From Ruminococcus sp. (GTDB lineage Bacteria; Bacillota; Clostridia; Oscillospirales; Ruminococcaceae): a DNA stretch of 64,000 bases. Of the stretch, positions 10,467-64,000 are shown in pieces. Position 1 is the stretch's first letter. Every line of letters begins with the position of its first letter. Where the stretch lies: positions 37,098 to 101,097 of the forward strand of contig NZ_JAFUAG010000014.1 of assembly GCF_017464355.1 (NCBI RefSeq), read 5' to 3'. The notes under the pieces are model-generated. The model had not been told where the DNA came from. It did not search any database and worked only from the letters and a program-made list of their open reading frames with translations. A program made the translations under genes and the position numbers.

Positions 10467-10467
10467 T

Positions 10468-11292
10468 ATGAGAAGACTTGCAAAAACGGCGCTGTCCGCC
10501 TTTGTTATGGGCACACTGATGATGACAGGCTGCGGTTCTTCCGTAAGCAGTTCCTCCGTGAAAGAAAGCACTGCCGAAAAGCCCGCAGAGACCTCTGCGG
10601 CTGAAACAACTGCCCCCGAGGAGGTAAAGCCTGTGGTAACAAGCTTCAAGGCACCCGAGGAGTACGGCAAGGTCATAGCCCTGACCTTTGATGACGGCCC
10701 CGATGCGGTGTCCACCAACATGATACTTGATGTTTTCGAGGAAAATAATGCCAGAGCCAGCTTTTTCCTTATCGGTGACAATATCACCGATGCCACCGCA
10801 GAAACAGTGAAAAGGGAGGCTCGGCTGGGCTTTGAGATAAACAGCCATTCAAAGACCCATTCGTATATGGATAAGATGACCCCCGAGGAGATAAAGGCGG
10901 AAATGGACTACACCGACGAGAAGATAAAGGAGCTTACAGGTGTTACACCAAGGTTCTTCCGCCCGCCCTACATAGCGGTCAGCGATACCATGTTCGAGAC
11001 CATTGACAAGCCCTTTATCAACGGCCTTGGCTGCAATGACTGGGACAAGAGCGTTTCTGCTGAGACCATAACCGAAAAGGTGCTTGCCCAGGCCGAGGAC
11101 GGCGCTATAATTCTCCTCCATGACGGCGGAAGCAATTTCCGCACCGCTGAAGCCCTGAAGACTATCGTGCCCGAGCTTCAGGCTCAGGGCTATGAACTTG
11201 TGACAGTGTCGGAGCTTTTCCATGCCAAGGGCATAGAACCTCAGGAGGACAATATTTTGTACAGCAGGGCTGAGCAGACCTCCATGTACTGA
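10468..11292 (+). CDS. Polysaccharide deacetylase lipoprotein (NodB domain, CE4)
   Basis: 274 residues, starting one base after the esterase stop, so the two are translationally linked. LMMTGC is the lipobox, followed by a Ser/Glu/Thr-rich tether. The NodB domain shows all CE4 motifs: TFDDGPD (catalytic base Asp and metal Asp), SHSKTH (the two metal-binding His), RFFRPPY and IILLHD (motif 5 His). The domain is metal-dependent and removes N- or O-acetyl groups from chitin-like sugars, peptidoglycan or xylan. The cell-surface location leaves peptidoglycan and dietary glycans as candidates. Confidence 0.9.
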   Translation: MRRLAKTALSAFVMGTLMMTGCGSSVSSSSVKESTAEKPAETSAAETTAPEEVKPVVTSFKAPEEYGKVIALTFDDGPDAVSTNMILDVFEENNARASFFLIGDNITDATAETVKREARLGFEINSHSKTHSYMDKMTPEEIKAEMDYTDEKIKELTGVTPRFFRPPYIAVSDTMFETIDKPFINGLGCNDWDKSVSAETITEKVLAQAEDGAIILLHDGGSNFRTAEALKTIVPELQAQGYELVTVSELFHAKGIEPQEDNILYSRAEQTSMY

Positions 11293-44362: not shown

Positions 44363-44866
44363 ATGAAAAACAACAAGCCCGTTGATAACATTCCCGAGAA
44401 GATACACGCTCGTCTTCACATTATTTATTTCATACTCAAATGTATATTCGCAGGGGCTGTTTTTATTGTGTTATGGAACCCAGCTGTCTTCATGTATGAA
44501 AAGCTGCAGGGCAATGAGATGCCTGAGAAGATCTCTGAGGAGTCACCCTTTCTGTTCCACCAGTACTGCGGGACATTTTTTGTGGAATTTGATAAGGACA
44601 ATTCCTTTGAGTCCCCTGAAGCCTACACAAAATACATCGAAGCCTATGCCGACAAGGAAGAGCCACTGGGCGGTGCAGAGTCTGTTGTAATGGGTGTCAT
44701 GACGATCACCCTTGTCGCAGGCCTTATACTTGCTTTGCGCAGCGGTGATAAAAAACGCATCTTCTGCGGCAAAGCCTCAAGATATTTCCTGCTCGTCGGA
44801 ACGATATGGGCGGCGGGCAATATCTATACGAGTATCTCAAGCGGCATAAGGGGAGCCAAAACCTAA
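44363..44866 (+). pseudogene. 5' half of a host membrane protein split by the integrated element
   Basis: Reads as 167 residues, but only the first 164 codons (to 44854) are host sequence; the last residues and TAA come from the element. Two or three membrane helices are seen (IIYFILKCIFAGAVFIVLW; VVMGVMTITLVAGLILAL; FLLVGTIWAAGNIYTSI). Joining at the shared GGGGA core to 54669 onward continues in frame as GIRG-PTRFDGM..., giving an intact protein of about 405 residues with about six helices. Function unknown. AGGAGAG precedes the ATG. Confidence 0.85.
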
Positions 44867-44878
44867 CCAATGCGAACC
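44850..44878. other. attL of the integrated element
   Basis: Core GGGGA at 44850-44854, then 13 bases, then arm CAATGCGAACC at 44868-44878, the exact inverse of the arm at 54643-54653. Reading the two element ends together restores a 50-bp attP with inverted arms around GGGGA, the form used by large serine integrases. Confidence 0.8.
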
Positions 44879-44917
44879 ACTCTATATTTTTGTAGGTGGG
44901 CGTTTTGGTATCGTTAT

Positions 44918-44948
44918 ACCCCGTAAGGCGTAAGCCCTGCGGGGTTTT
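44918..44948 (+). terminator. Terminator at the left end of the element
   Basis: ACCCCG (44918-44923) pairs with CGGGGT (44140-based numbering corrected: 44940-44945), then TTTT. In the excised circle it would directly follow the integrase stop at 44931-44933 and so terminate that gene. Confidence 0.65.
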
Positions 44949-44956
44949 CGCTCACA

Positions 44957-44994
44957 TATAAAAGCCGCCCGACGTGTGCCGAGCGGCTTGTTTT
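44957..44994 (-). terminator. Terminator of the lysis module
   Basis: AAGCCGC (44962-44968) pairs with GCGGCTT (44983-44989); on the minus strand it is followed by TTTTATAT. Confidence 0.75.
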
Positions 44995-44998
44995 GCAT

Positions 44999-45841
44999 TT
45001 ACTTTATGATTTTAATTTTCTGCCCGACATAGATCAAGTTAGCGTTTTTAATGCTGTTATCCTTGACGAGCTTTGCAACCGTTGTGCCGTACTTTTTCGC
45101 AATGGCTGTTAGAGTGTCGCCGCTCTTAACGGTATATGTAGTTGTTGTCGTGGTCGGCTTAGTCGGTTCGGCGGGTTTTGTCTCCGGCGTGGTTGCGGGC
45201 GTTGTAGCACCCTTAGAATAGCCGTTAAAGCCGCCGTTTTTGATTATAGATACATAATCTATCTTTGCTCTGTTAAGGTCTGTAGAGCCGCTCACGCCGC
45301 TTACGGAGCCCGTAAAGCTGTACTGATGTACTCCGTATGTGATCGAGGGCGTGCGGCTGATATTTGCGCACCATATCGCATAACGATTTCTAAAGGTCGC
45401 CGAAAGTCTCGACAAGAAAGCCTCATAGGAGTAAAGGGCGCAAAAATAGCCCGCCGCCTCTACAATGTCGATAAATGCCTTTATGATCGCCTGCAAGGTC
45501 GCCGCCGAAAGCCCGCTTTGTACTGCGTCCTCAATATCAAGGGCAACAAAGTACGGTATCGGCTTTACGCTGTCAAGGAGCTTAACAAAGCCTCTTGCCT
45601 CTGCCTGCGCTGCACTTACAGTTGTTGCATAGCAATAGTGATAGATACCGAAAGCGAGCCCCGCCGCCTTTGCTTTCTTGACGTTCTCGGTAAACTTGTA
45701 ATCGGTCTGCCTCGGATATGCCGCAACGTTTCCGTATGAGCTGCGAATTATAACAAAGTCCTTGCCGTTCTTCTTAGCCTTTGCCATGTCAACGGCTCCA
45801 TTCCATTGACTTACATCAAAGCCGTAAAATGTCGCTGCCAT
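44999..45841 (-). CDS. Phage endolysin: GH25 muramidase with C-terminal LysM
   Basis: 280 residues from ATG 45841 (GGAGGG 7 bases upstream; the longer frame to 45940 overlaps the previous gene). GH25 motifs: [12 protein letters not shown] (catalytic-site Asp), [28 protein letters not shown] (catalytic Asp/Glu pair). A Thr/Pro linker leads to one LysM repeat ([20 protein letters not shown]). It cuts the glycan strands of peptidoglycan to release phage; it needs the holin encoded just upstream. No signal peptide. Confidence 0.93.
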
Positions 45842-45843
45842 TA

Positions 45844-46014
45844 TCAACCCTCCATTTCTGCATAATGCGCCTTGATCTCGGCTATTGTGTCGGCGTTCTC
45901 CGCCTTGAAAGCCTCCGCCTCTGCAACGGTCATGCCGCACATTTCCGCAACCTGGTTAATGTCAACCTCGTATGCAAAAGCCTTGCAAGCCTCTCTCTTT
46001 TCCTGCTCACTCAT
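45844..46014 (-). CDS. Small phage protein before the lysozyme
   Basis: 56 residues from ATG 46014 with AAGGAGGAAA upstream, overlapping the holin end by 8 bases. Sequence [17 protein letters not shown] with an HTH-like segment ([19 protein letters not shown]). No known function. The tight packing between holin and endolysin suggests a lysis accessory or regulator. Confidence 0.65.
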
Positions 46015-46465
46015 TGTCGGTTTCCTCCTTTTCTGTGTTGTTTTCAACCGCTATTTTTAGCTTGTGTACGGTCTGTGTTAAGAACGGCGGGAGCGGCACA
46101 CCAATTACGGCGAGGTTTTCGAGTATAGAGATAAGTTCGTTTATAATCAACCATATAGCGACGATTACGCCGAAAAGGTAGTTAATATCAATGCTTATCC
46201 CTATTTTCTGCAAGCCCGACGTTATGAGCCAGTCCACAACCGCCGCAACACATACGACAAGTAAATAGCTTACTTTCTTGATAATGCCTTTTATGCCCGT
46301 CTTGCTTGAGAGCTCGGCGTTTATCCAAGCCTTAATCATGCCGCTTGCATAGTCGATAATCATTACCGCTATAAGAATGACAAGCGGTATTGCTATCTCC
46401 CGAAAATATGCGGTAAGCCCTCCGACGATAACGGCAAAAACGGCTTTGAAAACATTCTCTCTCAA
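46007..46465 (-). CDS. Phage holin (Bacteriophage_holin_4-like)
   Basis: 152 residues. Three to four membrane helices (LVILIAVMIIDYASGMIKAW; VSYLLVVCVAAVVDWLI; YLFGVIVAIWLIINELISI) with the family features DYxSG and NELISIxENxxxxGVPLP. Holins form membrane lesions that let the endolysin through. The charged tail ([12 protein letters not shown]) is typical. The downstream GH25 enzyme completes the lysis pair. Confidence 0.9.
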   Translation of the reverse strand: MRENVFKAVFAVIVGGLTAYFREIAIPLVILIAVMIIDYASGMIKAWINAELSSKTGIKGIIKKVSYLLVVCVAAVVDWLITSGLQKIGISIDINYLFGVIVAIWLIINELISILENLAVIGVPLPPFLTQTVHKLKIAVENNTEKEETDNE

Positions 46466-46636
46466 TTATTCCGCCTCCTCGCTCTCGTCCTCGCCGCTGT
46501 CAAAGTCATATCCCGTAATAGCCTTGTATTCCTCGGCTGTGATACGTCCCTTTACAACAGCGTCATAAACCTGTCTTATACTCCAATAACCCTTGTCGTA
46601 ATAAGACTTGATCGTGTTGTAATACTTATTACTCAA
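46466..46636 (-). CDS. XkdX-like small phage protein
   Basis: 56 residues if started at the TTG at 46636, which follows GGAGGAG; the longer frame to 46687 overlaps the gene before it. The motif YYDKGYWSIRQVYDAVVKGRITAEEYKxITG matches XkdX-type proteins found after tail-fibre genes in many Firmicutes prophages (key residues YWS, QVxDAVxxGxITxEEY). Function unknown; its position just before the holin is normal. Confidence 0.7.
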   Translation of the reverse strand: MSNKYYNTIKSYYDKGYWSIRQVYDAVVKGRITAEEYKAITGYDFDSGEDESEEAE

Positions 46637-46805
46637 CCTCGCTCGCCTCCTCCCTGCTCTCGTCCTCGGTTTCGAGTTCAAGCTCAATGTCGCACATCAT
46701 AGCGACGTAATCGACATTAGCGGCGTTGCGCTCCGCCTGCTCCTTGAGCTTGATATTTTTTGCACGCTCCTTGCGGAGCTGATCGCCAATAGAAATATAT
46801 TTCAT
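46629..46805 (-). CDS. Small phage protein overlapping the reverse transcriptase end
   Basis: 58 residues from ATG 46805 (GGAGGGA upstream). Start MKYISIGDQLRKERAKNIKL, a coiled-coil helix, then VAMMCDIELE and an acidic tail. Similar short proteins occur beside XkdX genes in Clostridia prophages. It overlaps the last 29 codons of the reverse transcriptase gene in another frame. Confidence 0.6.
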   Translation of the reverse strand: MKYISIGDQLRKERAKNIKLKEQAERNAANVDYVAMMCDIELELETEDESREEASEVE

Positions 46806-47850
46806 TGCAATCCCTCCATAATTCATTGTAATACTTTTCCATGCTCTTTATAAGATTATAACTATTGCCTTTTGAGGCGTGGGCTTTCCAAGCCTCAAAG
46901 CACTTGTCAACCTCCTCTCTCGTCATAATTCCGCATTTAGTGTGGTATACGAGTTTACGGAGCTTGCGCCGCTCGTGCGTGACTTTCTCCGGCAATACAA
47001 ACATAAGCACTTTGCCTGTTTCTGTCAGCTTAAAGCTAAAGCCGAGAAATTTCAAAGGCTGTTTAAGAGGAAAAATTTGTGTTTTCTTTGCATTCAAGGT
47101 CAATCCGAGCTCGGCGAGCTTGTCCGCAATTATGCGCTTGCAATATAGCAAATACTCTTTATCCTCATGTATCAATATAAAATCGTCCATATAGCGGATA
47201 TAGTGTTTTATGTGGAGTTTCTCTTTTATAAAATGGTCGAGATCGTCCAAAACGGCAAGCTCTATAAGCTGTGTAACCTGGGAGCCTAAATCCATTCCGA
47301 TATTAGGATTTTCACCTTGCGTAAAGCTGTTTATAATCTCGGCGGTGCGGTCACACGCCCACTCGTCCGCCGCTCTTTTGCGGACGGCGGCTATTGCAAC
47401 CTCGTGCGGCGTGCTGCCGAAATAGTTCTTTATATCGCATTTGAGCACATAGCCCTCACGCCCATGCTTGCGGTAAAACTTTTGTAAATGTGCCTTGAGC
47501 CGATTTCGTGCAAAGTCGGTGCCCTTGCCCGATTGACAAGCACAATTATCATAAATAAATGATTTGGAAATAGCCTCGGTCAAATAGTTGTCGCATAAGC
47601 TCCGTTGAAAAGTACGGTCTCTTATCCTTGTACTAACTATTACTCGCACTTTAGGCTCTGTGATCGCAAATACGGTATATTTACCGATTTTGTATTTACC
47701 GCTCAAAAGGTCTCGGCGGAGATCAAGGCAATTAACCAAGCCATTTTTAACAAAGCCTGCGGTGCTGTCTTTCCACATAACGCCGCTTTTGCATTTTTGC
47801 ATACCTCTGTAAAGATTTTCAAAAGAGCAAATTTCCTCTTTAACGCTCAT
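46717..47850 (-). CDS. Reverse transcriptase of the diversity-generating retroelement
   Basis: 377 residues. Reverse transcriptase motifs in order: EPKVRVIVSTRIRDRTFQRS (RT2), LKCDIKNYFGSTPHE (motif A Asp), GMDLGSQVTQLIELAVLDD (motif B' with the GSQxTQ form), HYIRYMDDFILI (YMDD catalytic pair), LGLTLNAKKTQIF and LKFLGFSF. No maturase or endonuclease domain, so not a group II intron. Together with the Avd gene and the adenine-rich template repeat just upstream this is a DGR enzyme, which copies the template RNA with errors at adenines. No clear ribosome binding site precedes ATG 47850; translation may start inefficiently. The C-terminal end overlaps the next gene. Confidence 0.9.
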   Translation of the reverse strand: MSVKEEICSFENLYRGMQKCKSGVMWKDSTAGFVKNGLVNCLDLRRDLLSGKYKIGKYTVFAITEPKVRVIVSTRIRDRTFQRSLCDNYLTEAISKSFIYDNCACQSGKGTDFARNRLKAHLQKFYRKHGREGYVLKCDIKNYFGSTPHEVAIAAVRKRAADEWACDRTAEIINSFTQGENPNIGMDLGSQVTQLIELAVLDDLDHFIKEKLHIKHYIRYMDDFILIHEDKEYLLYCKRIIADKLAELGLTLNAKKTQIFPLKQPLKFLGFSFKLTETGKVLMFVLPEKVTHERRKLRKLVYHTKCGIMTREEVDKCFEAWKAHASKGNSYNLIKSMEKYYNELWRDCNEIYFYWRSAPQGACKKYQAQGAGGAQRR

Positions 47851-48016
47851 AATAATATTTACGCCGCTTATAGTTGTACTTGCTCTCTCGGAGCAAACAA
47901 CGTCGGCGTGTTACATTTCACCTCAACTTTTATAGTTTCGGTCGGGATAACGGTTCCTTGTTAGAGTAGCATTGATTTCAGCGTATAGCTTACTTTATTC
48001 GAGCGGTTCTCTCAAT
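47851..48016 (-). ncRNA. DGR RNA spacer region between template repeat and reverse transcriptase
   Basis: No gene fits here. In studied DGRs the segment directly 3' of the template repeat is part of the structured RNA that, with the RT and Avd, primes cDNA synthesis. The 166 bases here occupy that position. The extent of the RNA is inferred. Confidence 0.5.
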
Positions 48017-48166
48017 CCGGGGCGAGCCCGTAAGTATTGCTCGCATTGTTGTTGTTCAAAGCTCCCGACGTGTTCACGTTGCGCACATTATTAGCGTTCC
48101 CGACGTTAGGAGTACGCAACCACCAATTACGAGCCGAGCGTATAACAACCGCTAACCCACTATCAA
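48017..48166 (-). repeat. DGR template repeat (TR)
   Basis: Begins right after the Avd stop codon. Read on the minus strand it would encode NWWLRTPNVGNANNVRN...GALNNNNASNTYGLAPD then TGA, with 12 Asn codons (AAC/AAT) and no other unusual composition, exactly the AAY-rich design of DGR templates whose adenines are randomised. It ends in the GC-rich block complementary to 48017-48033, the likely counterpart of the initiation-of-mutagenic-homing sequence. It has no start codon or ribosome binding site and is not itself a gene. Confidence 0.9.
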
Positions 48167-48167
48167 A

Positions 48168-48569
48168 TTATTTACTTTCCGATTTACGCCAATTTCGGAG
48201 GAGGGCTTGAACCTCTTTTGCAAGGTGCGTCCAAAACTCAACACGTCCGCTCTCAATTCCGAAAGTACGGTATGCAATATCTATCATACTAAGCAAAGCG
48301 TAAGTCTCGGCTAAAGCCTTAGTCTGATATTGCCTCCGCAAATTATAGGCTTGCTCGTCGTTATCGGCTACATATACCGAGTTAGCCGCAACAATGTTAT
48401 TGTTAATACTCAAAGCCGCCTCGACGAGCTTATTTGATATGCACCAACGGTAACGCTTCGGGAAATTCTTTTCGTTACTGCATATCTTTATTGTATATGC
48501 GGCGAGTTCGTTTGCTCTCGTTATAACTAAGAGCTTTCCCTCGCCACGCTTTGATTTTACAACCGACAT
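48168..48569 (-). CDS. avd: DGR accessory protein Avd (four-helix bundle)
   Basis: 133 residues. All-helical, with basic and aromatic residues in the style of bAvd/23S-IVP-like bundles: ITRANELAAYTIKICSNEKN, FPKRYRWCISNKLVEAALSI (the FPKxxR motif is typical), then RQYQTKALAETYALLSMIDI and a last helix with VQALLRNWRKS. Avd binds the reverse transcriptase and template RNA and is needed for homing. GGGAGGGG precedes ATG 48569. The position between a variable-gene end and the TR is the standard order. Confidence 0.85.
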   Translation of the reverse strand: MSVVKSKRGEGKLLVITRANELAAYTIKICSNEKNFPKRYRWCISNKLVEAALSINNNIVAANSVYVADNDEQAYNLRRQYQTKALAETYALLSMIDIAYRTFGIESGRVEFWTHLAKEVQALLRNWRKSESK

Positions 48570-48602
48570 CTTAGCCCCTCCCTCGCCCTCTATCGAGGGC
48601 GA

Positions 48603-48941
48603 TTAAAGATTAAATAATGCAACAAGCCGGGGCGAGCCCGTAATAAGGCTTGTAACTGTGAAAAACAAACTTGAGCGTTTTCCTCTAAATCCGAGCCGCT
48701 TTCCGCACAAGGATATGTCTTGACATGGGAAACCTGCGCACCAGATGTCAGCCCTGGGAATGTCAGTTGCTCGTACTGTTCGTATGTCGTCGGCAAACCA
48801 TTCTCCCTCCGTTTCGTGTATTGCTCTGTATGATTTAACGGCGAATTTGTCTTGCTCGCAAAAGCCGAGGCATTTGTGCCCCGCAAGCTCTAAACCTCTG
48901 CGAAAGCCGCCCACGCCTGCGAAAAAGTCAATAAATGTCAT
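48603..48941 (-). pseudogene. Truncated C5 cytosine DNA methyltransferase fused to a variable-repeat end
   Basis: 112 residues from ATG 48941; full-length relatives have about 300-400. Motif I FIDFFAGVGGFRRGLE and motif IV with the catalytic Cys (CAGFPCQDIS) are intact, followed by GFRGKRSSLFFTVTSLI. After that the sequence runs into the 17-base block at 48627-48643 that is identical to the end of the template repeat, and stops. The target-recognition domain and motifs VIII-X are lost, so it cannot be an active enzyme. The start overlaps the gene before it (ATGA). Confidence 0.85.
48622..48653. repeat. Orphan variable-repeat 3' end (IMH-like block) with hairpin
   Basis: CCGGGGCGAGCCCGTAA at 48627-48643 is identical to 48017-48033 in the template repeat. 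On the minus strand, in the TR frame, it reads YGLAPACCII then a stop, a believable C terminus of a DGR target protein. ACAAGCC (48622-48628) and GGCTTGT (48647-48653) can pair around it, and GGGC-GA-GCCC pairs inside. Confidence 0.7.
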
Positions 48942-49108
48942 TGCTCGCCGTTCCCCCGTTCTGAAAAGTCTTTGCAAGGGTAAAGCCTGCTCCATTCAAG
49001 GCATTTTCGGCAAAGCCTGCAATCTAAGCAAGTTTTAATGCTCGGAGGCGGGCGGCTCTCGGTGATAGCAGGCTTTAGCTTATGCCGCTTGTGAGATTTC
49101 CTTGACAT
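48938..49108 (-). CDS. Small Cys-rich protein (zinc-ribbon-like)
   Basis: 56 residues, ATG 49108 to TGA 48940-48938, overlapping the methyltransferase start by four bases. Basic N terminus MSRKSHKRHKLKP, then CLDCRLCRKC and a fifth Cys in YPCKDF: a likely metal-binding knuckle. It follows the small membrane protein after five bases. Function unknown; probably an early phage gene. Confidence 0.6.
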   Translation of the reverse strand: MSRKSHKRHKLKPAITESRPPPSIKTCLDCRLCRKCLEWSRLYPCKDFSERGNGEQ

Positions 49109-49113
49109 TAAAA

Positions 49114-49293
49114 TCACTCCGTTTCAATGTGCTTTATGTTACGCTCGGCGGTCTTGCCGAGCTTTTCTGCCTCTTTACGCTTGATCTCGTCGGCGAGCTT
49201 GCCCTCTGATATAATGGCACTAATCAGAATAACGAAAAGGCAAGCCAAGCCGCCGACAACGACGAGAAAAAGCAATATACTTGAACGTCCCAA
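49114..49293 (-). CDS. Small single-pass membrane protein
   Basis: 59 residues from a TTG start at 49293 with GGAGG about 8 bases upstream. One membrane helix (SSILLFLVVVGGLACLFVIL) is followed by a charged helix (LADEIKRKEAEKLGKTAERN). It ends in the ribosome binding site of the Cys-rich gene (ACGGAGTGA). Function unknown. 49294-49374 holds nothing I can name. Confidence 0.55.
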   Translation of the reverse strand: MGRSSILLFLVVVGGLACLFVILISAIISEGKLADEIKRKEAEKLGKTAERNIKHIETE

Positions 49294-49374
49294 TATTAAC
49301 GCCTCCTCTCGTCGGTGAATTTGTGGAACGGGGCTTGTTTAACCGCTATGCCCCTAATCGAAAGCGGCGAGGCT

Positions 49375-49578
49375 CTAAGCCTCTATCGGATAATTACGCC
49401 TAAACTCAAAGCTCTCGGTCGAGTAATTCCACTCGTAACGCTTTGCGGCGGTCTCGGTGCTTATAGTAAGCTCCATTACGCCGCCCTGCTCCTCAAGTGT
49501 CAATCCGTATACGGTATTTGAGCCGCCGAGATTATTTACTATTACGGAGGCAAGCAACATCATTTTGTCAGTTATCAT
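49375..49578 (-). CDS. Small phage protein, unknown
   Basis: 67 residues from ATG 49578, preceded by GGGGGTGAG. MITDKMMLLASVIVNNLGGS, then a beta-rich region with alternating hydrophobic residues (GGVMELTISTETAAKRYEW). Unknown family. It follows the 211-residue gene upstream by 13 bases. Confidence 0.55.
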   Translation of the reverse strand: MITDKMMLLASVIVNNLGGSNTVYGLTLEEQGGVMELTISTETAAKRYEWNYSTESFEFRRNYPIEA

Positions 49579-49591
49579 ATACTCACCCCCC

Positions 49592-50227
49592 TCATTCAAC
49601 CCACATTCGAGGCGGCAAGTGTGCTATTTCCTCGTCGAAAGCCTCACCGCTTTTTCCTGTGAGGTCTGAATAAAGAGCATTTATTCTCTCGTTCTTACGC
49701 TCAAGCAATGCGCCCTTTTCGTCAAGTTCCTCAACAATAGAGGTCAAGCAATCATGGGCGGCTTTAAGGTCGAAAAACATAACAAGGGTCATAAGCACTT
49801 TACGAAAGTTGCGTATCAACTGTTGCTTTGTCAAGCGCATTAACCGCTTTTCTGCCTCCTGCATAGCGAGGGTTTCCTCAAACCCTGATAGCTTGAAATA
49901 GTCAAGCTCGGCGGGGTTAAACCCATAAACTGTGTAAAGTTCGCCCAAAAGATTTACGGTCATGTCGTCCCATATTTCGCAATACTCATTGTATTCGCCG
50001 CCGCAATAGTCGTACTCGCTCAACCGCTCCCACATTGTATACGCTCCGGCGGCGAGTTCGTCGAATTGATCTTTATACTCGTTATAATACCCCTCTATGG
50101 AGCTATCCTCGTAGCCGTATGCGTCGCCGTTGTCGCCTATTTCGTCGAGCCATTCGACAATATTTTCAAAGCTCAACGAGGAGCCTAAACACGATTTCTT
50201 CCATAAAGGCGTTTTGCTCTGTTTCAT
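49592..50227 (-). CDS. Phage protein of unknown function
   Basis: 211 residues, very acidic and aromatic-rich in the first half (EGYYNEYKDQFDELAAGAYT), with a predicted helical second half containing KNERINALYSDLTGKSGEAF. I recognise no domain. It starts 7 bases after the PAPS-reductase-type gene and belongs to the early operon. Confidence 0.6.
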   Translation of the reverse strand: MKQSKTPLWKKSCLGSSLSFENIVEWLDEIGDNGDAYGYEDSSIEGYYNEYKDQFDELAAGAYTMWERLSEYDYCGGEYNEYCEIWDDMTVNLLGELYTVYGFNPAELDYFKLSGFEETLAMQEAEKRLMRLTKQQLIRNFRKVLMTLVMFFDLKAAHDCLTSIVEELDEKGALLERKNERINALYSDLTGKSGEAFDEEIAHLPPRMWVE

Positions 50228-50234
50228 AGCTCAA

Positions 50235-51119
50235 TCACTCCGTTTCATTATTTTTCAGATCATCAAATGTAATCTGTCTAAAGTCCTCCTCAAGCCACCA
50301 ACGGAAAACGTCAAGTCCCGTTTCCCAACCTTTTGAGGCGGGCTTGCCGAGCTCTTTTCGGTGCTCAAGCATACGGTCAAAGGCTCTTATATAGTTTTCT
50401 TTGTACTTAGGATATATCGCAAACTCCTTATAACGAGCCGTCTTGCTTGCCATGGGACAACCGATACACCCGATACGAGTAAAGCCGCACTCGTAAAGCG
50501 GGTTGCTCCTGCAACCATAGTGCGAGAGAAATTCCCAAACGTCAGCCTCCGTCCAATCGACAATCGGATTTACCATTACTTTATGTTGCAAATGGCAATG
50601 CTCCACCAGTTGCCGAGCCTCGTCATTATCATTGTTGAGAACGAGCCCGCCTTGCTTATTTACTGCGTATTGTGCGCCGAGCTCCTCCGCTTTCTTTTGC
50701 GCCGTCTTAGGCTTGCCGAGTATATTTACAAGTCCTGAACGTTCTCGTCGGCTTGCGCTTTCCGCCTGCCTAACGCCCGTAACGACGGTACGCCCTGTCC
50801 CCGCTCGCTCCTTGAGGTATGAACAACAATAGCGTACTATCCTTGTCGGCGGCATTAGCTTTTTAACGATAAGCTGCCACATGGATATATCGGGGTAATT
50901 GACCTTGACATTTGGCTTACTGCGCACATAATAGACGGTTTCGGGAGCGTCAACGGTTGTGTGATTATGTACCGCCTCAAACTCCACGCCTGCAAGCTCG
51001 GCGAGAATAAGTATAGCGTCGCTGTCCTTGCCGCCGCTATATGCCAAATAATACGGCTCGTCGTTGGGCTCAAAGGCTCTTAGGCGGTCAATAGCCTTTT
51101 GCTCTTTCTGCTTGTCCAT
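50235..51119 (-). CDS. PAPS reductase/DndC-family PP-loop protein
   Basis: 294 residues from ATG 51119, whose A overlaps the stop of the gene before it; GGAGG is 10 bases upstream. The PP-loop YLAYSGGKDSDAI binds ATP or an adenylyl sulfate. CCSYLKE and a four-Cys region (YECGFTRIGCIGCPMAS) resemble metal-cluster ligands of DndC-like and phage members. Possible roles are DNA or tRNA modification by sulfur, or nucleotide metabolism during infection. The genes of a complete phosphorothioation system are not here. Family firm, role unknown. Confidence 0.85.
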   Translation of the reverse strand: MDKQKEQKAIDRLRAFEPNDEPYYLAYSGGKDSDAILILAELAGVEFEAVHNHTTVDAPETVYYVRSKPNVKVNYPDISMWQLIVKKLMPPTRIVRYCCSYLKERAGTGRTVVTGVRQAESASRRERSGLVNILGKPKTAQKKAEELGAQYAVNKQGGLVLNNDNDEARQLVEHCHLQHKVMVNPIVDWTEADVWEFLSHYGCRSNPLYECGFTRIGCIGCPMASKTARYKEFAIYPKYKENYIRAFDRMLEHRKELGKPASKGWETGLDVFRWWLEEDFRQITFDDLKNNETE

Positions 51120-51349
51120 TACTCGCACGCCTCCTCAATGGAGCTTATAGCCTCGTCGAGATCGTCGCAAGCTGTGTCAAGGCTATCTATAGCACTTTCC
51201 GCCGCCTCATACCTCTCGGAACCCTGCAAGTTTTCGGGGATATTATAAAAATAGGTTTCCTCCTCGCCTTTAAGTATCTCAAGCTCCGTCATGATCTCGC
51301 CGAGTTGGTCGGCAAGGGCTCTCAATTTCTTACGTCTTGCATTGTTCAT
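51119..51349 (-). CDS. Small coiled-coil phage protein
   Basis: 76 residues, helical throughout (KKLRALADQLGEIMTELEIL; AESAIDSLDTACDDLDEAIS), ending EEACE. Similar short acidic coiled-coil proteins sit in early operons of many Clostridia phages. Function unknown. Confidence 0.65.
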   Translation of the reverse strand: MNNARRKKLRALADQLGEIMTELEILKGEEETYFYNIPENLQGSERYEAAESAIDSLDTACDDLDEAISSIEEACE

Positions 51350-51384
51350 AACTCAATCACTCCGTTTCGTTATATTGTCGCCGC

Positions 51385-51594
51385 TTATGCGCTCTCGGCG
51401 TTCTCCTCAAAAAGATAGTCAAGCGTGAGGGACGGGAAAAATGTGTCTCTTATCAAGAAAGCCTCTTTGAGAGTAAAGCGCCCGCTCTTGTTGAGTTTTT
51501 CCGATATCGTCGAGGCGGTGACGTTGAGGAGCTCGGCGAGCTTTGTTCTCTTAATGCCCGCTCTTGCGAGCTCTGCCTCTAAGTTTCTATACAT
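51385..51594 (-). CDS. Cro-like XRE-family regulator
   Basis: 69 residues. Helix-turn-helix KRTKLAELLNVTASTISEKL (about residues 15-34). It is the first gene of the leftward early operon and faces the repressor gene across a 167-base switch region. ATG 51594 follows AAGGAGG. Confidence 0.85.
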   Translation of the reverse strand: MYRNLEAELARAGIKRTKLAELLNVTASTISEKLNKSGRFTLKEAFLIRDTFFPSLTLDYLFEENAESA

Positions 51595-51640
51595 AATGCG
51601 TACCTCCTTTTTAGTTTACCATATTTGGTGAATTTTCTAT

Positions 51641-51738
51641 ATTATACACCCTAACGGGTTAATTGTCAAGGGGTTTTTCAAAAAATTTTTGTTTTAGGGT
51701 GAATTTCTCTTGATTTTTCTGTATAAGTATGCTATAAT
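51641..51738. promoter_or_regulatory. Divergent lysogeny switch: two promoters and repeated half-sites
   Basis: Leftward: TTGACA (complement of 51664-51669), 17 bases, TATAAT (complement of 51641-51646). Rightward: TTGATT 51710-51715, 17 bases, extended TGCTATAAT ending 51738. CACCCTAA (51647-51654) and its inverse TTAGGGTG (51694-51701) flank the leftward -35 and precede the rightward promoter; GTGAATTT recurs near 51628 and 51699. These are likely repressor/Cro operators. Confidence 0.8.
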
Positions 51739-51761
51739 TCTAAAAAAGGAGGTATCGCACA

Positions 51762-52196
51762 ATGGGCGCAAAAAGTAACTATGAGTTAGGTGAGGTCGAG
51801 CAAAGGCTAAAGGATTATATCTTATCTCAATACAAGAGTATGAGGAAGTTTTGTATGCAAATAGACCGCTCGTACTCCACTATTGACAATATGCTAAAAA
51901 GAGGTTTGCTCAATAGTAGTGTGTCGCTTGTACTATATGTTTGCGATAGGTTAGGGCTTGATATTGATGAGCTTTTTAACGGCAAGGTTATTGAAAAAGC
52001 GGAAACACTCTACCCCGAAATAAGCAATCATGAAATAGAACTTATACGGGCATATAGAGCAAAGCCCGATATGCAAAAAGCCGTTGATACTCTCTTAGGA
52101 ATAGAGAATACCAACGGCAATATAGCGGAGGATATAGCAAAAACGGTTGAAAATGGTGAGAGCATTTTCAAGAAAAATTCTATAGGTACAAAATAA
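51762..52196 (+). CDS. Phage-type repressor (XRE family, no peptidase domain)
   Basis: 144 residues, AAAGGAGG upstream. Helix-turn-helix around SMRKFCMQIDRSYSTIDNML and a second helical part. The C terminus (EIELIRAYRAKPDMQKAVDT) is the short helical type without the LexA-like S24 peptidase, so induction would not be by RecA self-cleavage. It is divergent from the Cro-like gene and upstream of the HIRAN gene and integrase, the typical lysogeny arm. Confidence 0.85.
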   Translation: MGAKSNYELGEVEQRLKDYILSQYKSMRKFCMQIDRSYSTIDNMLKRGLLNSSVSLVLYVCDRLGLDIDELFNGKVIEKAETLYPEISNHEIELIRAYRAKPDMQKAVDTLLGIENTNGNIAEDIAKTVENGESIFKKNSIGTK

Positions 52197-52267
52197 TGTT
52201 TGCGGTTCCTGCTCCGAGCGGGAATATTTACATATTTACTATTTACTATACTTAGGAGGTATAATCT

Positions 52268-53146
52268 ATGTTGCAAGAAATGATTGATAAGTATAGCTCT
52301 AATACTGTTATGATCGGCTCAAGTGTGACGTATGCCGAAAGCCTGCTCCAAGCGGGCGAGACTGTTTTATATGCGTGGTTCGGTACGATCTTCACTTGTA
52401 ATTGCTCCAATAGGTTTAATAATGATGTTGTGCCGTTGAGCCAAAAGAAAGCGGCTGTCATAGTCGCTACGAATTATAGGCTTATAGCTTGCTATAAATC
52501 GTTGGTCTCTCGGTTTGCTTTTAGTGTAAATTTAAGCGAGATCGTTTCAATGAGGTTTAATAAACCGTTGATACATTCGAGCCAAATTATAGCAAGATCG
52601 GGTTTTAATGATTACTACATTGACGTCAACGCAAAATACGTCGAGGAGATATTCTCCGCCTTGTGCGCCGCCTCTGATCGGGTAAAAGCCGCAACCGCCG
52701 TTAATACGCCTGCTCAACCCTCCGAAAAGCCCAAAGCTAAACCCAAAAAGAAAAAAGAGGTCGTAACCTCCCTTGAGTATAAAGCTATAGTGTATAGCAA
52801 AAACCCTAAACCCAAAGAAATATATACGGAATTTCACACAAAGGTTGCGGGAGTTACTTTCAAGAATGACGACGGCTCCGATAGACAAAAGATAGTAAAG
52901 AAATGTAAAGAGGGACAAGCGGTTTATTTTCGCCCCGTCCCGACGGAGGAGCACCCGAAAGCAATAGGCGTGTTTACCTCCGGCGGAAAGCAGCTCGGGC
53001 ACGTTAGCTCCTCAATAGCCGACGATCTTATATTTTTATATCCAAACAACCCCGCAAAGGTTACAATAGCTAACATTACGGGCGGTAATGGTAAAAATTA
53101 CGGTTGTAACCTTTTTGTACAGATTATAAGGCTTGCTAAAAAATAA
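52268..53146 (+). CDS. HIRAN-domain protein with PH-like N-terminal domain
   Basis: 292 residues. N-terminal about 135 residues resemble bacterial PH-like domains (ETVLYAWFGTIFTC; AAVIVATNYRLIACYKS), then a Pro/Lys linker (KPKAKPKKKKE) and a HIRAN domain: FHTKVAGVTFKND...EGQAVYFRPVPTEEHPKAIGVFTSGGKQLGHVSSSIADDL (key residues G, P, HPKAI, LGHV). HIRAN domains bind 3' ends of single-stranded DNA in repair helicases; stand-alone phage and mobile-element versions are uncharacterised. It is encoded in the lysogeny arm between repressor and integrase and could be cargo or defence. Confidence 0.75.
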   Translation: MLQEMIDKYSSNTVMIGSSVTYAESLLQAGETVLYAWFGTIFTCNCSNRFNNDVVPLSQKKAAVIVATNYRLIACYKSLVSRFAFSVNLSEIVSMRFNKPLIHSSQIIARSGFNDYYIDVNAKYVEEIFSALCAASDRVKAATAVNTPAQPSEKPKAKPKKKKEVVTSLEYKAIVYSKNPKPKEIYTEFHTKVAGVTFKNDDGSDRQKIVKKCKEGQAVYFRPVPTEEHPKAIGVFTSGGKQLGHVSSSIADDLIFLYPNNPAKVTIANITGGNGKNYGCNLFVQIIRLAKK

Positions 53147-53181
53147 AGCCTGCTCACAAAAGCAGACAAGGAGGCGAAATA

Positions 53182-54690
53182 TTGAAAGCTGTCATATATG
53201 CCCGCTATTCCTCAACCAATCAAAAGGAGATAAGCATAGAGGGGCAATTAAGAGAGTGCGGAGCATACGCCGAGCGTTGCGGCTATAAGGTTATAGGCGA
53301 GTACATAGATAGAGCGTTAAGCGGCAAGTCTGATAGCCGCCCCGAATTTCAACGCCTCATAGCCGATAGCAAAAAGGGGCAATTTGATATTGTCATAGTG
53401 TGGAAATTAGACCGTTTCGCCCGCAATAGATACGATAGCGCCGTTTATAAGCGGCAATTAAAGAAAAACGGCGTTAAGGTCGTGTCCGCAACCGAGCCAA
53501 TAGGCGAGGGCTCCGAAAGCGTGCTTGTTGAGGCTATATTAGAGGCTACGGCGGAAATGTACTCTTTGCAGCTCGCCGAGAATACAATGCGAGGTATGAA
53601 AGATACGGCGTTAAAGGGCTATTGTACGGGCGGTACAATCCCGCTCGGCTTTAAGGTCGAAAACAAATTCCTTATTCGTGATGACGAGAAAGCCCCTATA
53701 ATAGAATTTATCTTCGAGGAATACAACCGAGGATCCACTCAAGCGGAAATTTGCCGAGCGTGCAAAGAGAGGGGCTATAAGACAAAATACGGCAAGGATT
53801 TTAACGTTAACTCAATAGCCTCTATCCTCCGCAATAGAATGTATATGGGCGACTATACCTACAAGGGCGAAATACCCCGCACTTGTCCCGCCCTCGTCTC
53901 GGAGGAGGTCTTTAACTCCGTACAAGCTCGGTTAGAGATCAACCGCCGACAAAGGGGGCGAAAAATCACGAACGAAAAAGTTGTATATTCCTTGAGCGGT
54001 AAATGCTTTTGCGGCAAATGCGGCGAGCACATGACGGGCGAGAGCGCCTCCTCTCATGGTATTCAGCACCATTATTACACTTGCCACAACCGCAAGAAAT
54101 ACAAGGCTTGCGACAAGCGGCGAGAGCACAAGGAGGAATTGGAGCGGTTTGTAGTCGAGAAAACTTTGCAATACGTCCTCTCGCCCGCCCACATTGATTT
54201 TATAGCCGAGCGAGTGTGCGAGGAATACCGCAAGGAGTTTAGCTTTGATAACATAGAGCGGCTTGAGCGGCGGCTTGCTACAATAGAAATAGAGTTCGAC
54301 AAATGCACCGAGGCTATGATAAACGCCCGCTCGCAACTCATGATAGACAAGATAAACGAAAAAGCCGAGCTCCTTGAGGTGCAAAAGCAAGATACCGAAA
54401 TAGAGCTCGCAAAGCTCCGCATAGCGGCGGACATAGCCTTAAACCCCGACGAGGTGCGGGCGTGGCTTTTGAGCTTTTGCAATGGCAATATAGACGATCT
54501 CGACTTTCAACGCCGCATAATAGATGTTTTTATTAACTCTGTATTTGTTTACGACGATAAGTACGTTATCTATTTCAACGTAAAAGGTGGCGAGGCTACA
54601 ATACCGAGCACCCCTCCCGACATTTCCGGCGAGCTTGAGAACGGTTCGCATTGTTCGTGTTGTGGGGACCCACACGTTTTGACGGCATGA
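53182..54690 (+). CDS. Large serine integrase of the element
   Basis: 502 residues from TTG 53182 (AAGGAGG 7 bases upstream). Resolvase domain with the catalytic Ser in YARYSSTNQKE and the VIVWKLDRFARNRYD motif; recombinase domain (PLGFKVENK...TQAEICRACKERGY); zinc-ribbon CFCGKCGEHM...YYTCHNRKKYKACDK; coiled coil of about 60 residues. It catalyses attP x attB recombination. The last residues after GSHCSCCG (DPHVLTA) are encoded by host DNA beyond the core; in the circle the frame would instead run into a 26-residue tail ending GRFGIVIPRKA. Confidence 0.95.
   Translation: MKAVIYARYSSTNQKEISIEGQLRECGAYAERCGYKVIGEYIDRALSGKSDSRPEFQRLIADSKKGQFDIVIVWKLDRFARNRYDSAVYKRQLKKNGVKVVSATEPIGEGSESVLVEAILEATAEMYSLQLAENTMRGMKDTALKGYCTGGTIPLGFKVENKFLIRDDEKAPIIEFIFEEYNRGSTQAEICRACKERGYKTKYGKDFNVNSIASILRNRMYMGDYTYKGEIPRTCPALVSEEVFNSVQARLEINRRQRGRKITNEKVVYSLSGKCFCGKCGEHMTGESASSHGIQHHYYTCHNRKKYKACDKRREHKEELERFVVEKTLQYVLSPAHIDFIAERVCEEYRKEFSFDNIERLERRLATIEIEFDKCTEAMINARSQLMIDKINEKAELLEVQKQDTEIELAKLRIAADIALNPDEVRAWLLSFCNGNIDDLDFQRRIIDVFINSVFVYDDKYVIYFNVKGGEATIPSTPPDISGELENGSHCSCCGDPHVLTA
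54643..54668. other. attR of the integrated element
   Basis: Arm GGTTCGCATTG (54643-54653), 10 bases, core GGGGA (54664-54668). It lies inside the integrase C-terminal codons. Confidence 0.8.
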
Positions 54691-61453: not shown

Positions 61454-63145
61454 TCATAAAGCTCTTATGCCCTTTACATGGGCGGCTATAGCGGAAAGGT
61501 CTGTTATATTCACATCGCCGTCCCCGTTTACATCGGCTATGTCAGGCTCTTCCAGCGGACGTATACCCTTGACATGGGCGGCCACTGCCATAAGGTCAGT
61601 GACATCTACCTGACCGTCGTGGTTGATATCGGCCTTGAGGTGGGCGGGCTCATCTACAGGCTCCTTCTTATCCAGAAGCTCGTAGTTGAGGCCGACCTCT
61701 TCAGCGTACCGATGACCTGCGGTGTTCTCATAGCAGTACATCACGAAGTTCGGGCAGTATATTAATTCGGCGTCGATATGATATTGGCCTAAAGCACATT
61801 CGCCTATGGTGGTGACGTTTTTGGGGATATTTATTCTTTCAAGGTCATTGCAGTCGAAAAACGCTTCTAAGCCTATAGTCTCCAGGGTGTCGGGAAGAGT
61901 AACTCTTTTAAGGGCTGTACATTCACTGAAAGACTGTTCCCCGATCTCCGTAACGCCCTCGGGTATAGTAATCTCTTCAAGGGCGCTGCATTCTGAAAAA
62001 GCATAAGCACCGATATTTTTTACTCCCGAGGGGATATTTATGTTCGTAATACTTTCACAGTGGAAGAAAGCATATTCGTCGATCTTTTCCACCGTCGAGG
62101 GGATAGCTGCGTCTTTGAGTGCTGTACAGCCATAGAAAGCGTGGAGGGGTATCTCAGTGATATGGTCGGGCAGGACAACGCTCTCAAGGGCTGTGCAATT
62201 GTAGAAAATGTCTTTGCTAATGCTTTCAACGCTGTCGGGAAGAGTAACTCTTTCAAGGGCTGTACATTCACTGAAAGTTTGTTCCCCGATCTCCGTAACG
62301 CCCTCGGGTATAGTTATCTCTTCAAGGGCACTGCATTCTGAAAAAGCATAAGCACCGATATTTTTTACTCCCGAGGGGATATTTATGTCCGTAATGCTTG
62401 TACAGGATCGGAAAGCACCCACGCCGATCTTTTCTGCCGTCGAGGGGATAGCTGCGCCTTTGAGCGCTTTGCAGCCGCAGAAAGTATTGTCAGAGATCTC
62501 GGTGAGACCGTTGGGGAGGACAACGCTCTCAAGGGCTGTGCAGTCGAAGAAAATGCCTATGCCAATGCTTTCAACGGTGTCGGGGACAACTGCTCTTTTA
62601 AGAGCTGTACAGCCAAAGAATGCACCATCATCTATGGCAGTGACACTTTCGGGGATAAATATGCGGGTCACGTCAGTGTCACGGAAAGCATAGCAGCCTA
62701 TCTTGGTGACACCGTCGGGCACCTCCGCTTTTTCAGGGCATTCTTTAGCGTCGATAAGCACACCGTTGACGACGACCATGGGGTCTTCCTTGCGCTTGTT
62801 ACGCAGCCATTTTGTATCGGAAAAAGCATCTTCGCCGAAATCGGTGATACCTGCGGGGATATCTATCTCTTCAACATCAAAGCAGTCCCTGAAAGCGCAG
62901 CCGCCGATAGTTGTGACAGCTTTACCGTCTACCTCAGCGGGGATAGTAACGTGTGTATCGCTGCCGTTGTAATTTTTTATCTCGATAGTGCCGTCTCTTT
63001 GCACAACGCAGGTGAAGTCGCCGCTGGTGAACTCTTCAGCGCTTGCGGTGACAGCTGTGTTCAGCGGGGTAAGGGCTGAGGGCAGGGCTGTTCCGCCGAA
63101 GACGAAAGCCATTGCCAGCAGGGCTGCAGTGATTTTTTTGTACAT
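61454..63145 (-). CDS. Secreted BspA-type LRR protein with C-terminal dockerin
   Basis: 563 residues from ATG 63145 (AAGGAGA about 9 bases upstream; ATG 63166 would overlap it). Signal peptide to about residue 37. About 16 LRR_5 repeats of 23 residues follow, then a Cys/Tyr-containing cap (CYENTAGHRYAEEVGLNYEL) and a dockerin (DINHDGQVDVTDLMAVAAHV, DVNGDGDVNITDLSAIAAHV). Five repeats are duplicated almost exactly at the DNA level with a 345-base period. It should bind scaffold cohesins and contact host, bacterial or plant surfaces. It is a tandem paralogue of the gene to its right. Confidence 0.92.
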   Translation of the reverse strand: MYKKITAALLAMAFVFGGTALPSALTPLNTAVTASAEEFTSGDFTCVVQRDGTIEIKNYNGSDTHVTIPAEVDGKAVTTIGGCAFRDCFDVEEIDIPAGITDFGEDAFSDTKWLRNKRKEDPMVVVNGVLIDAKECPEKAEVPDGVTKIGCYAFRDTDVTRIFIPESVTAIDDGAFFGCTALKRAVVPDTVESIGIGIFFDCTALESVVLPNGLTEISDNTFCGCKALKGAAIPSTAEKIGVGAFRSCTSITDINIPSGVKNIGAYAFSECSALEEITIPEGVTEIGEQTFSECTALERVTLPDSVESISKDIFYNCTALESVVLPDHITEIPLHAFYGCTALKDAAIPSTVEKIDEYAFFHCESITNINIPSGVKNIGAYAFSECSALEEITIPEGVTEIGEQSFSECTALKRVTLPDTLETIGLEAFFDCNDLERINIPKNVTTIGECALGQYHIDAELIYCPNFVMYCYENTAGHRYAEEVGLNYELLDKKEPVDEPAHLKADINHDGQVDVTDLMAVAAHVKGIRPLEEPDIADVNGDGDVNITDLSAIAAHVKGIRAL

Positions 63146-63194
63146 AGTTGTTTTCTCCTTGTTCATAAATGAAAATTCTCTTAATAACTAATAT

Positions 63195-63311: not shown

Positions 63312-64000
63312 TTACTTAAGTGGACGAATGCCCTTTACATGGGCGGCAATAGCAGAAAGGTCTGTTACATTCACATCGCCGTCATGGTTGACATCAGCTA
63401 TGTCCGGGTCTGTCAGCGGGCGTATACCCTTGACCTGGGCGGCTACCGCCATAAGGTCAGATACGTTTATCTCGCCGTCGCCGTTGATATCGCCCTTCAT
63501 GGGTGTATCTTCGGTGTCGGTGGGGGTGTCATCGGGGATATCGGTGGGGTCATCGGGTTTGTCGATGGGTTCCTGCTTGTCGAGGAGTTCGTAATCGATA
63601 TTATTATCTATGGCATACTGTTCGGCTGCGGTGTCTGCGTAGCAGAAGAGCTTGAAGTCGAAGAGTTTTTTGTAACCACCGTTCATTTCGTCATAATCAT
63701 AATATATGCCGAAAGCGTCATCACCTATCGATTCAACTGTTTTCGGGATAGTTACGCTTTTAAGTCTTCTGCAACATTCAAAAGCACCGTAGCCTATGCT
63801 TGTTACACCCTCGGGGATAGTTACGTTCGTAAGGCTTGCGCACCATGAAAAAGCACCGACGCCTATGGTCGTTACACTATCGGGGATAGTTATGTCCGTG
63901 ATGTCAGCACAATCATAAAAAGCGTCTTCGCCAATGCTCTTTACACCATCGGGTATGACCACATCACCTTTGCAGGTCTTGCCGTCGATGAGAATACCAT
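63312..64000 (-). CDS. BspA-type LRR protein with C-terminal dockerin, 5' end outside window
   Basis: The frame is open to the window end (reads GILIDGKTCKGDVVIPDG from 63998), so the start lies beyond. Four LRR_5 repeats are visible, then a cap with FCYADTAAEQYAIDNNIDYEL, an Asp/Pro/Thr linker and a dockerin (DINGDGEINVSDLMAVAAQV, DVNHDGDVNVTDLSAIAAHV). The tail is nearly identical to that of the preceding protein, pointing to a recent tandem duplication. Confidence 0.92.
   Translation of the reverse strand, partial: GILIDGKTCKGDVVIPDGVKSIGEDAFYDCADITDITIPDSVTTIGVGAFSWCASLTNVTIPEGVTSIGYGAFECCRRLKSVTIPKTVESIGDDAFGIYYDYDEMNGGYKKLFDFKLFCYADTAAEQYAIDNNIDYELLDKQEPIDKPDDPTDIPDDTPTDTEDTPMKGDINGDGEINVSDLMAVAAQVKGIRPLTDPDIADVNHDGDVNVTDLSAIAAHVKGIRPLK

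What the first reader, a model, noticed from the sequence alone, without database searches (positions are those of the whole stretch)
46717..48653. Diversity-generating retroelement (Avd, template repeat, reverse transcriptase) on a small integrated element
On the minus strand the order is variable-gene end, Avd (48569-48168), an adenine-rich template repeat (about 48166-48017), an RNA spacer and a reverse transcriptase with YMDD (47850-46717). The template reads NWWLRTPNVGNANNVRN... with 12 AAC/AAT codons, the pattern of templates that diversify C-type-lectin/FGE-type receptor domains. This is seen directly; the mechanism (adenine-directed mutagenesis and homing) is known from the Bordetella phage system.
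Basis: partly seen in the sequence, partly recalled or inferred. Interest (0 to 1): 0.88.

Follow-up and report, generated by a model that had tools for sequence, protein, structure and literature searches.

The report
Diversity-generating retroelement that lost its target
A gut-bacterium prophage keeps a complete-looking machine for rewriting one of its own genes, but a large deletion has removed that gene except for its last few codons, so here the machine is probably stranded.

Summary
The cassette is real. On the minus strand of a Ruminococcus-type genome lie Avd (48569-48168), an adenine-rich template repeat (about 48133-48013), a conserved spacer RNA and a DGR-clade reverse transcriptase (47850-46717), in the order of Bordetella phage BPP-1. 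Relatives confirm the mechanism class: 35 of 35 loci with RT identity of 55% or more and at least 1 kb upstream carry a TR/VR pair; in 28 distinct pairs 381 of 823 template A's differ from VR against 25 of 1,697 other bases.

The 'variable-gene end' is only a stub: 21 nt of the TR/VR match, the stop codon and a hairpin, joined at about 48642 to the 5' third of a cytosine methyltransferase gene. No other variable repeat or FGE-fold protein was found in the 91%-complete assembly. The 9.8-kb element looks like a deletion derivative of a prophage such as the 32-kb one of R. bicirculans. RT and Avd show no faster change than in the nearest relative, so the loss looks recent. A known kind of system, stranded. 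The breakpoint 1-3 nt from the homing-initiation tract is a curiosity seen once.

The parts
46717..47850 (-). DGR reverse transcriptase (377-aa ORF; its last part overlaps the next small ORF 46629-46826)
   Evidence: PF00078, phrog_1423, SQ and YMDD, place in tree, best PDB sequence match 8ub7_A
47851..48016 (-). IMH* end and spacer RNA between template and RT, with conserved motifs and a covarying consensus fold
   Evidence: alignment of 12 spacers; 17 of 28 predicted pairs have a change on both sides in at least one sequence
48013..48133 (-). template repeat (TR); G/C tract CGGGCTCGCCCCGG at 48030-48017
   Evidence: limits by comparison with TR/VR pairs of relatives
48168..48569 (-). Avd accessory protein
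   Evidence: phrog_3206 8.9e-19; aligned with 21 Avd-like proteins of relatives, 28-78% identical
48583..48602 (-). hairpin TCGCCCTC-GATA-GAGGGCGA downstream of the VR stub
   Evidence: 8-bp stem with 4-nt loop; 2 of 2,000 single-base shuffles of the 75 nt reach it; a 4-nt-loop stem of 6 bp or more follows the VR in 44 of 60 distinct relatives
48610..48643 (-). stub of the variable gene: 21 nt of TR/VR match (IMH; 48643-48623) and tail to the stop codon TAA 48612-48610
   Evidence: 57 of the first 58 nt from 48641 equal the R. bicirculans VR tail
48641..48643 (.). deletion junction (ambiguous over about 3 nt)
   Evidence: methyltransferase-like sequence to about 48642, VR-like from about 48643
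48642..48995 (-). 5' part of a C5-cytosine methyltransferase gene, cut by the deletion
   Evidence: PF00145 1.1e-26, profile positions 1-98 of 324; 80% identical to L174 over 100 aa
49592..51594 (-). early-region genes: 49592-50227 (no family), 50235-51128 PAPS-reductase-like, 51119-51349, 51385-51594 (regulator by position, inference)
   Evidence: 51385 has a homologue in the R. bicirculans prophage
51762..53146 (+). ORF 51762-52196 (repressor by position, inference) and 52268-53146 with bPH_3/HIRAN matches just under the Pfam cut-offs
53182..54690 (+). large serine recombinase (integrase)
   Evidence: Resolvase, Recombinase and Zn_ribbon_recom domains; phrog_95 integrase 1.3e-110
44999..46687 (-). 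lysis cassette: GH25-LysM endolysin 44999-45940, small ORF 45844-46047, holin 46007-46465, phrog_134 ORF 46466-46687
44850..54668 (.). whole integrated element, with GGGGA at 44850-44854 and 54664-54668; it interrupts one host membrane-protein gene
   Evidence: in the same-genus genome G006 both halves of the gene match adjoining stretches (25.7% over 101 aa and 31% over 218 aa) of one 396-aa open frame; ends read directly

Best explanation
This is a BPP-1-type diversity-generating retroelement inside a defective prophage. In an intact ancestor the RT-Avd complex would have copied the template RNA with errors at adenines, and the cDNA would have homed into the 3' end of a receptor-like variable gene just upstream of avd, marked by the G/C tract and the hairpin. 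A deletion, very roughly 20-25 kb, then joined a methyltransferase gene to the last 17-21 nt of the variable repeat and removed the target together with the replication, packaging, head and tail genes expected there. The donor half (avd, TR, spacer RNA, RT) and the 3' landing site (IMH and hairpin) look intact, but the 5' TR/VR homology needed to finish homing is gone, so the cassette most likely has no effect here. Shown: anatomy, family, A-specific variation in relatives, truncated target, no other target in this assembly. Inferred: activity of the ancestor, size and recency of the deletion, present inactivity.
For: RT, Avd, lysis and integrase identities. Same gene order as BPP-1: mtd(VR1)-avd-TR-brt-small ORFs-endolysin. 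RT sister to that of L003 (SH-aLRT 88, not starred) inside the DGR group. TR/VR pair in 35 of 35 loci with RT identity >=55% and >=1 kb upstream and in 46 of 50 at 45-55%. A's changed 381/823, other bases 25/1,697 in 28 distinct pairs. VR tail and hairpin in the window 57 of 58 nt identical to R. bicirculans. Methyltransferase cut at profile position 98 of 324. The 32-kb R. bicirculans prophage has homologues of both ends and, in between, ParB-like, replication-initiation, terminase, portal, protease, major head, major tail, tape-measure and tail genes and the VR gene (10 of 33 ORFs scanned). No VR or FGE-fold protein elsewhere in the genome. Relative-rate counts without excess in the window: RT 21 to 24, 25 to 25, 17 to 24 with three outgroups; Avd 6 to 12. 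Spacer motifs kept.
Against: No reads could be seen, so an assembly error at 48642 or a mixed population is not excluded. The genome is 91% complete, so a target in the missing part is possible. Curated Pfam and NCBIfam models score Avd below their cut-offs, a PDB sequence search with Avd found nothing and no structure model could be made. Only 12 ORFs of the element were scanned against Pfam or PHROGs, so a small structural gene could have been missed. Some protein alignments of methyltransferases run past the junction to about 48606 (L178 and L180); I take this as chance extension because the DNA there equals a VR tail. A phage contig with terminase and portal (C18) is in the same assembly; that it is the lost part is not strictly excluded.
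Confidence: 0.88

Rival explanations
1. The junction is an assembly or binning artefact: the strain carries an intact prophage with a full variable gene and the contig joins two distant phage parts.
For: No reads available; 49-contig, 91%-complete assembly; a separate 6.8-kb phage contig with terminase and portal genes is in the assembly.
Against: The longest match of the stub to the rest of the genome that BLAST found is 17 nt, 21 with one A difference, short for a false join (inference). No VR elsewhere and no further fragment of this methyltransferase: the only other PF00145 gene is a complete one on C33. No match to the R. bicirculans tail protein, which by the tool's own warning shows little. 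C18's terminase is 24% identical to that of the R. bicirculans prophage and 27 loci around relatives of C18's terminase contain no RT or Avd match in the stretches fetched.
Confidence: 0.08
2. The DGR is still in use at a distance: it diversifies a target elsewhere in the host or in co-resident phages.
For: RT, Avd, TR and spacer look intact and are not changing faster; targets far from the cassette are known in gut prophages (PMC12629997, passages) and are seen in some relatives.
Against: No second match to the TR with A-tolerant pattern and up to 3 mismatches, none by DNA or protein apart from the stub and the TR itself, and no FGE-sulfatase domain in the genome, although that search rings in 5 of 14 control genomes. 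The 35 of 35 close relatives have the target next to avd.
Confidence: 0.04
3. The deletion was caused by the DGR itself: a break or failed cDNA integration at the G/C tract was joined to the methyltransferase gene.
For: Junction 1-3 nt from the 5' edge of the G/C tract; in BPP-1 the marker boundary lies within (GC)14 and a nick or break there is postulated (PMC3240598, passages).
Against: One case; no other truncation at this place in the 157 other loci with an RT hit or the 64 loci (contigs overlap between the two), and the one other truncation seen (L107) is elsewhere in VR. A chance breakpoint, or one favoured by the neighbouring hairpin, explains it as well.
Confidence: 0.07

Closest known systems
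Bordetella phage BPP-1 tropism-switching cassette (mtd-avd-TR-brt), NC_005357
   Same: Order VR gene-avd-TR-RT-small ORFs-endolysin on one strand; RT in the same group of the tree; G/C tract at the 3' end of the repeat, base difference between TR and VR ends, hairpin with 4-nt loop that fits the 5'-GRNA consensus given in PMC3240598.
   Different: The target gene is present there and absent here; the RTs are distant (long branch); phage type and host differ.
   Same: RT 69%, Avd 72% identical, VR tail and hairpin 57 of 58 nt, same lysis cassette and a homologous recombinase.
   Different: Intact VR gene and structural genes; other early genes; recombinase only 38% identical.
DGRs of viral contig L003 and of Faecalibacterium phages Brigit, Toutatis and Lelie and Roseburia phage Shimadzu
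   Same: L003 has the closest RT (77%) with VR and Avd; the named phages encode related RTs (34-37% identical).
   Different: L003 keeps its VR. The named phages were seen only as RT matches in a listing; their TR/VR were not examined.

Membership tests
Diversity-generating retroelement | RT of the DGR group with YxDD and the SQ dipeptide of motif 4 (criterion from PMC3521204, passages) | tested here: met
   SQ 190, YMDD 220; tree
Diversity-generating retroelement | Accessory protein Avd next to the template | tested here: met
   phrog_3206 8.9e-19; below the cut-offs of Pfam and NCBIfam models
Diversity-generating retroelement | Template repeat next to RT, rich in adenines at codon positions 1 and 2 | tested here: met
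   12 AAC/AAT codons
Diversity-generating retroelement | Variable repeat differing from the template at adenines | tested here: not met
   In this genome only 21 nt remain, with a single A-to-C difference at a position that also differs in relatives. Met in relatives.
Diversity-generating retroelement | IMH/IMH* and downstream hairpin | tested here: met
Diversity-generating retroelement | Adenine-directed mutagenesis and homing actually taking place | not testable with these tools
   needs reads of many cells or a bench test
Intact prophage | terminase, portal, capsid and tail genes within the element | tested here: not met
   none among the 12 ORFs scanned; phrog_134 has no known function; small ORFs such as 46629, 49375, 51119 and 51385 were not scanned
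Group II intron RT | RT clusters with group II introns | tested here: not met
   two RTs that I took for group II by eye (L164, L165) form the outgroup; NCBIfam group II model 89 bits against a cut-off of 300
Retron RT | RT clusters with retron RTs | not tested
   no retron RT was put in the tree; NCBIfam retron St85 model 38 bits against a cut-off of 235

The most novel reading that the evidence does not exclude
DGR homing itself can make large deletions: a break or failed cDNA integration at the G/C tract of the variable repeat was joined to a gene many kb away, which in one step stranded the retroelement, removed the phage's structural genes and fixed the prophage in its host, while leaving the minimal 3' landing site (IMH and hairpin) next to a new, unrelated gene.
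Probability: 0.07. Interest if true: 0.6.

Novelty: new member of a known kind. Interest (0 to 1): 0.25.

Why it matters
It adds one cassette to a large known family and shows that a DGR can outlast its target: RT, Avd and template can look complete while nothing is left to diversify, so a survey that calls DGRs on RT plus accessory genes alone would count it as active. DiGReF noted 28 SQ-motif RTs without hits, apart from six truncated ones mostly put down to false negatives such as short contigs (PMC3521204, passages); here the reason is a visible deletion. If breakpoints at the homing tract recur, they would bear on the open question of how the target is cut.

Tried and rejected
A working local DGR was rejected: the VR is cut off. 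Targets elsewhere in the own genome were sought four ways and not found. Other loci with a breakpoint at the IMH, to test the homing-scar idea, were sought (163 loci with an RT hit, six of them own-genome loci, many near-duplicates) and (64 of the 78 new loci; the 14 left out, L234-L247, are contigs already covered) and none was found.

Loci that at first seemed to lack a VR: L100 has VR-Avd-TR on the strand opposite to its RT; L147/L166 and L108 have a VR downstream; L042 is cut by the contig end; L107 is truncated elsewhere in VR; L102, L081, L252, L253, L082, L109 and L139 stayed without a pair on either strand in the stretches scanned. Among loci with RT identity under 45% and at least 1 kb upstream, 28 of 47 gave no pair in the narrow upstream scan; several of these had A-biased pairs in the wider scan, the rest are unresolved, and some of these RTs (the YSDD group) may not be DGR RTs at all.

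Rfam found nothing in the element. The exact junction was not found in viral contigs, which only says that no copy is held there. Whether contig C18 is the missing phage part was tested and not supported. Notebook entry 2 calls L100 VR-less and identifies L102 with it; one search corrects that for L100. A structure model of Avd could not be obtained.

Papers: PMC3240598, PMC12875486, PMC12629997 and PMC3521204 were seen as passages only; PMC6642488 gave no passage for my terms; all other papers only in search listings. I do not claim that DGRs stranded by deletion are unreported; three searches were too coarse for that.
Full report
What is in the sequence. The RT matches PF00078 (5.6e-19) and phrog_1423 (1.6e-90); Avd matches phrog_3206 'Avd protein of DGR' (8.9e-19), while Pfam and NCBIfam models score it below their cut-offs and a PDB sequence search with it is empty. 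The RT has an SQ dipeptide and YMDD, and its best solved relative is 8ub7_A (4.9e-26), which I recall as the Bordetella phage DGR RT. In a quick tree of 56 RTs it lies inside the group of RTs with confirmed TR/VR, sister to the RT of viral contig L003 (SH-aLRT 88, not starred), away from two RTs that I took for group II by eye and from a separate group with YSDD.

Relatives show the mechanism. I scanned the loci fetched with the RT for a repeat pair in which the copy near the RT differs at A only. All 37 loci first examined, of 141 returned and with several near-duplicates and some cut by contig ends, gave a pair; the window gave none. In the wider scan, 35 of 35 loci with RT identity of 55% or more and at least 1 kb upstream, and 46 of 50 at 45-55%, had one; below 45% it was 19 of 47. 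Over a fixed 90-nt stretch in 28 distinct pairs, 381 of 823 template A's were changed against 25 of 1,697 other bases. The pairs were found with a score that is lenient to A differences, so they are not chosen blindly; but that does not make a difference of 46% against 1.5%. The variable gene sits directly upstream of avd in the relatives printed.

The window lacks that gene. Upstream of its avd only 21 nt of the TR/VR match remain (48643-48623), then the stop codon and a hairpin with 8-bp stem and GATA loop (48602-48583), which 2 of 2,000 single-base shuffles equal; a stem of 6 bp or more with a 4-nt loop follows the VR in 44 of 60 distinct relatives. From 48641 on, 57 of 58 bases equal the VR tail of Ruminococcus bicirculans, after which the two diverge. 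Immediately upstream lies the 5' part of a cytosine methyltransferase gene (PF00145 positions 1-98 of 324), 80% identical to L174 over 100 aa, whose sequence differs beyond the junction. Some protein alignments to other methyltransferases run on to about 48606 (L178 and L180); since the DNA there is that of a VR tail I take this as chance. The junction is fixed to about 3 nt (48641-48643). The methyltransferase frame and the old VR frame differ (read directly).

No other target was found. The template matches only itself and the stub in the 3.48-Mb assembly; an A-tolerant pattern with up to 3 mismatches finds only the template; the R. bicirculans VR protein finds only the template; PF03781 finds nothing, although it rings in 5 of 14 control genomes. 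The assembly is 91% complete.

The element. It runs from GGGGA at 44850 to GGGGA at 54664 and interrupts one host membrane-protein gene: in a same-genus genome both halves match adjoining stretches of one 396-aa open frame; the left half only weakly (25.7% over 101 aa). It holds endolysin, holin, small ORFs, the DGR, the methyltransferase stub, a PAPS-reductase-like gene, presumed regulators and a large serine recombinase; none of the 12 ORFs scanned is a packaging, head, tail or replication protein. Of its 33 ORFs of at least 110 aa, 10 were scanned and match ParB-like, replication-initiation, terminase, portal, protease, major head, major tail, tape-measure and head/tail proteins; the tenth is the VR gene. 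The interval between the small gene 51385 and the VR end is about 25 kb there and 2.7 kb here, so I put the deletion at very roughly 20-25 kb; the early genes of the two phages differ.

State of the cassette. RT and Avd are open; relative-rate counts against L003 show no excess in the window (RT 21 to 24, 25 to 25 and 17 to 24 with three outgroups; Avd 6 to 12). The spacer RNA keeps the invariant motifs, with a consensus fold in which 17 of 28 pairs have changed on both sides in at least one of 12 sequences. So the loss is recent, or the cassette is kept for a reason not visible here.

Mechanism and rivals. In BPP-1 the marker-transfer boundary maps within the (GC)14 tract, a nick or break there is postulated, the hairpin is needed for efficient homing, and 5' integration needs TR/VR homology (PMC3240598, passages). 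A recent study instead describes cDNA primed from an adenine in the spacer, with the integration step incompletely understood, and finds the stem-loop important but not strictly required (PMC12875486, passages). The window keeps the 3' requirements and has lost the 5' homology, so I infer that homing cannot normally be completed. The breakpoint next to the tract invites the idea of a homing accident. I looked for further cases in the loci and found none at this place, and one truncation elsewhere (L107), so the idea rests on one case and stays unlikely. An assembly error cannot be excluded without reads. A separate phage contig in the assembly (C18) belongs to a phage type whose 27 fetched relatives contain no RT or Avd match in the stretches held; that it is the lost part is not strictly excluded.

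Verdict. Novelty: new member of a known kind. Interest 0.25.

Noticed in passing
L100 10001-12000: DGR in which the RT lies on the strand opposite to VR-Avd-TR (on minus: VR 12000-11893, Avd 11796-11410, TR 11338-11231; 14 A and 1 other differences): an inverted arrangement.
   Followed up: partly
L102 around 9932-11000; L081 8600-10020 (also L252, L253): RTs of the DGR group without a detectable TR/VR pair on either strand in the stretches scanned. In L081 the sequence at the template position already reads like a diversified copy.
   Followed up: partly
L107 1300-2500: Another truncated variable repeat: VR keeps its 5' part and is joined straight to avd; 4-kb contig, so an assembly error is possible.
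   Followed up: no
L017 9264, L020 20286, L021 11512, L027 4766, L083 16706: Second A-specific variable repeats away from the one next to avd: DGRs with two targets.
   Followed up: no
L298 (G000 contig C18, 1-6798): 6.8-kb phage contig with terminase subunits, portal and head protease whose two ends share 133 identical bases: circular or repeat-bounded.
   Followed up: partly
window 48584-48641 against L085: IMH, VR tail and hairpin are 57 of 58 nt identical to R. bicirculans although the RT is only 69% identical and is closer to L003: possible exchange of the target end between phages, or strong constraint.
   Followed up: no
window 61454-63166 and 63312-63962, minus strand: Repeat proteins with C-terminal DxNxDG motifs that look like dockerin modules (recalled motif, seen in the translations, no family search).
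   Followed up: no
L147 and L166 (genome G048): Two DGR cassettes with the same RT score in one chromosome, with the A-specific repeat downstream of the RT.
   Followed up: no
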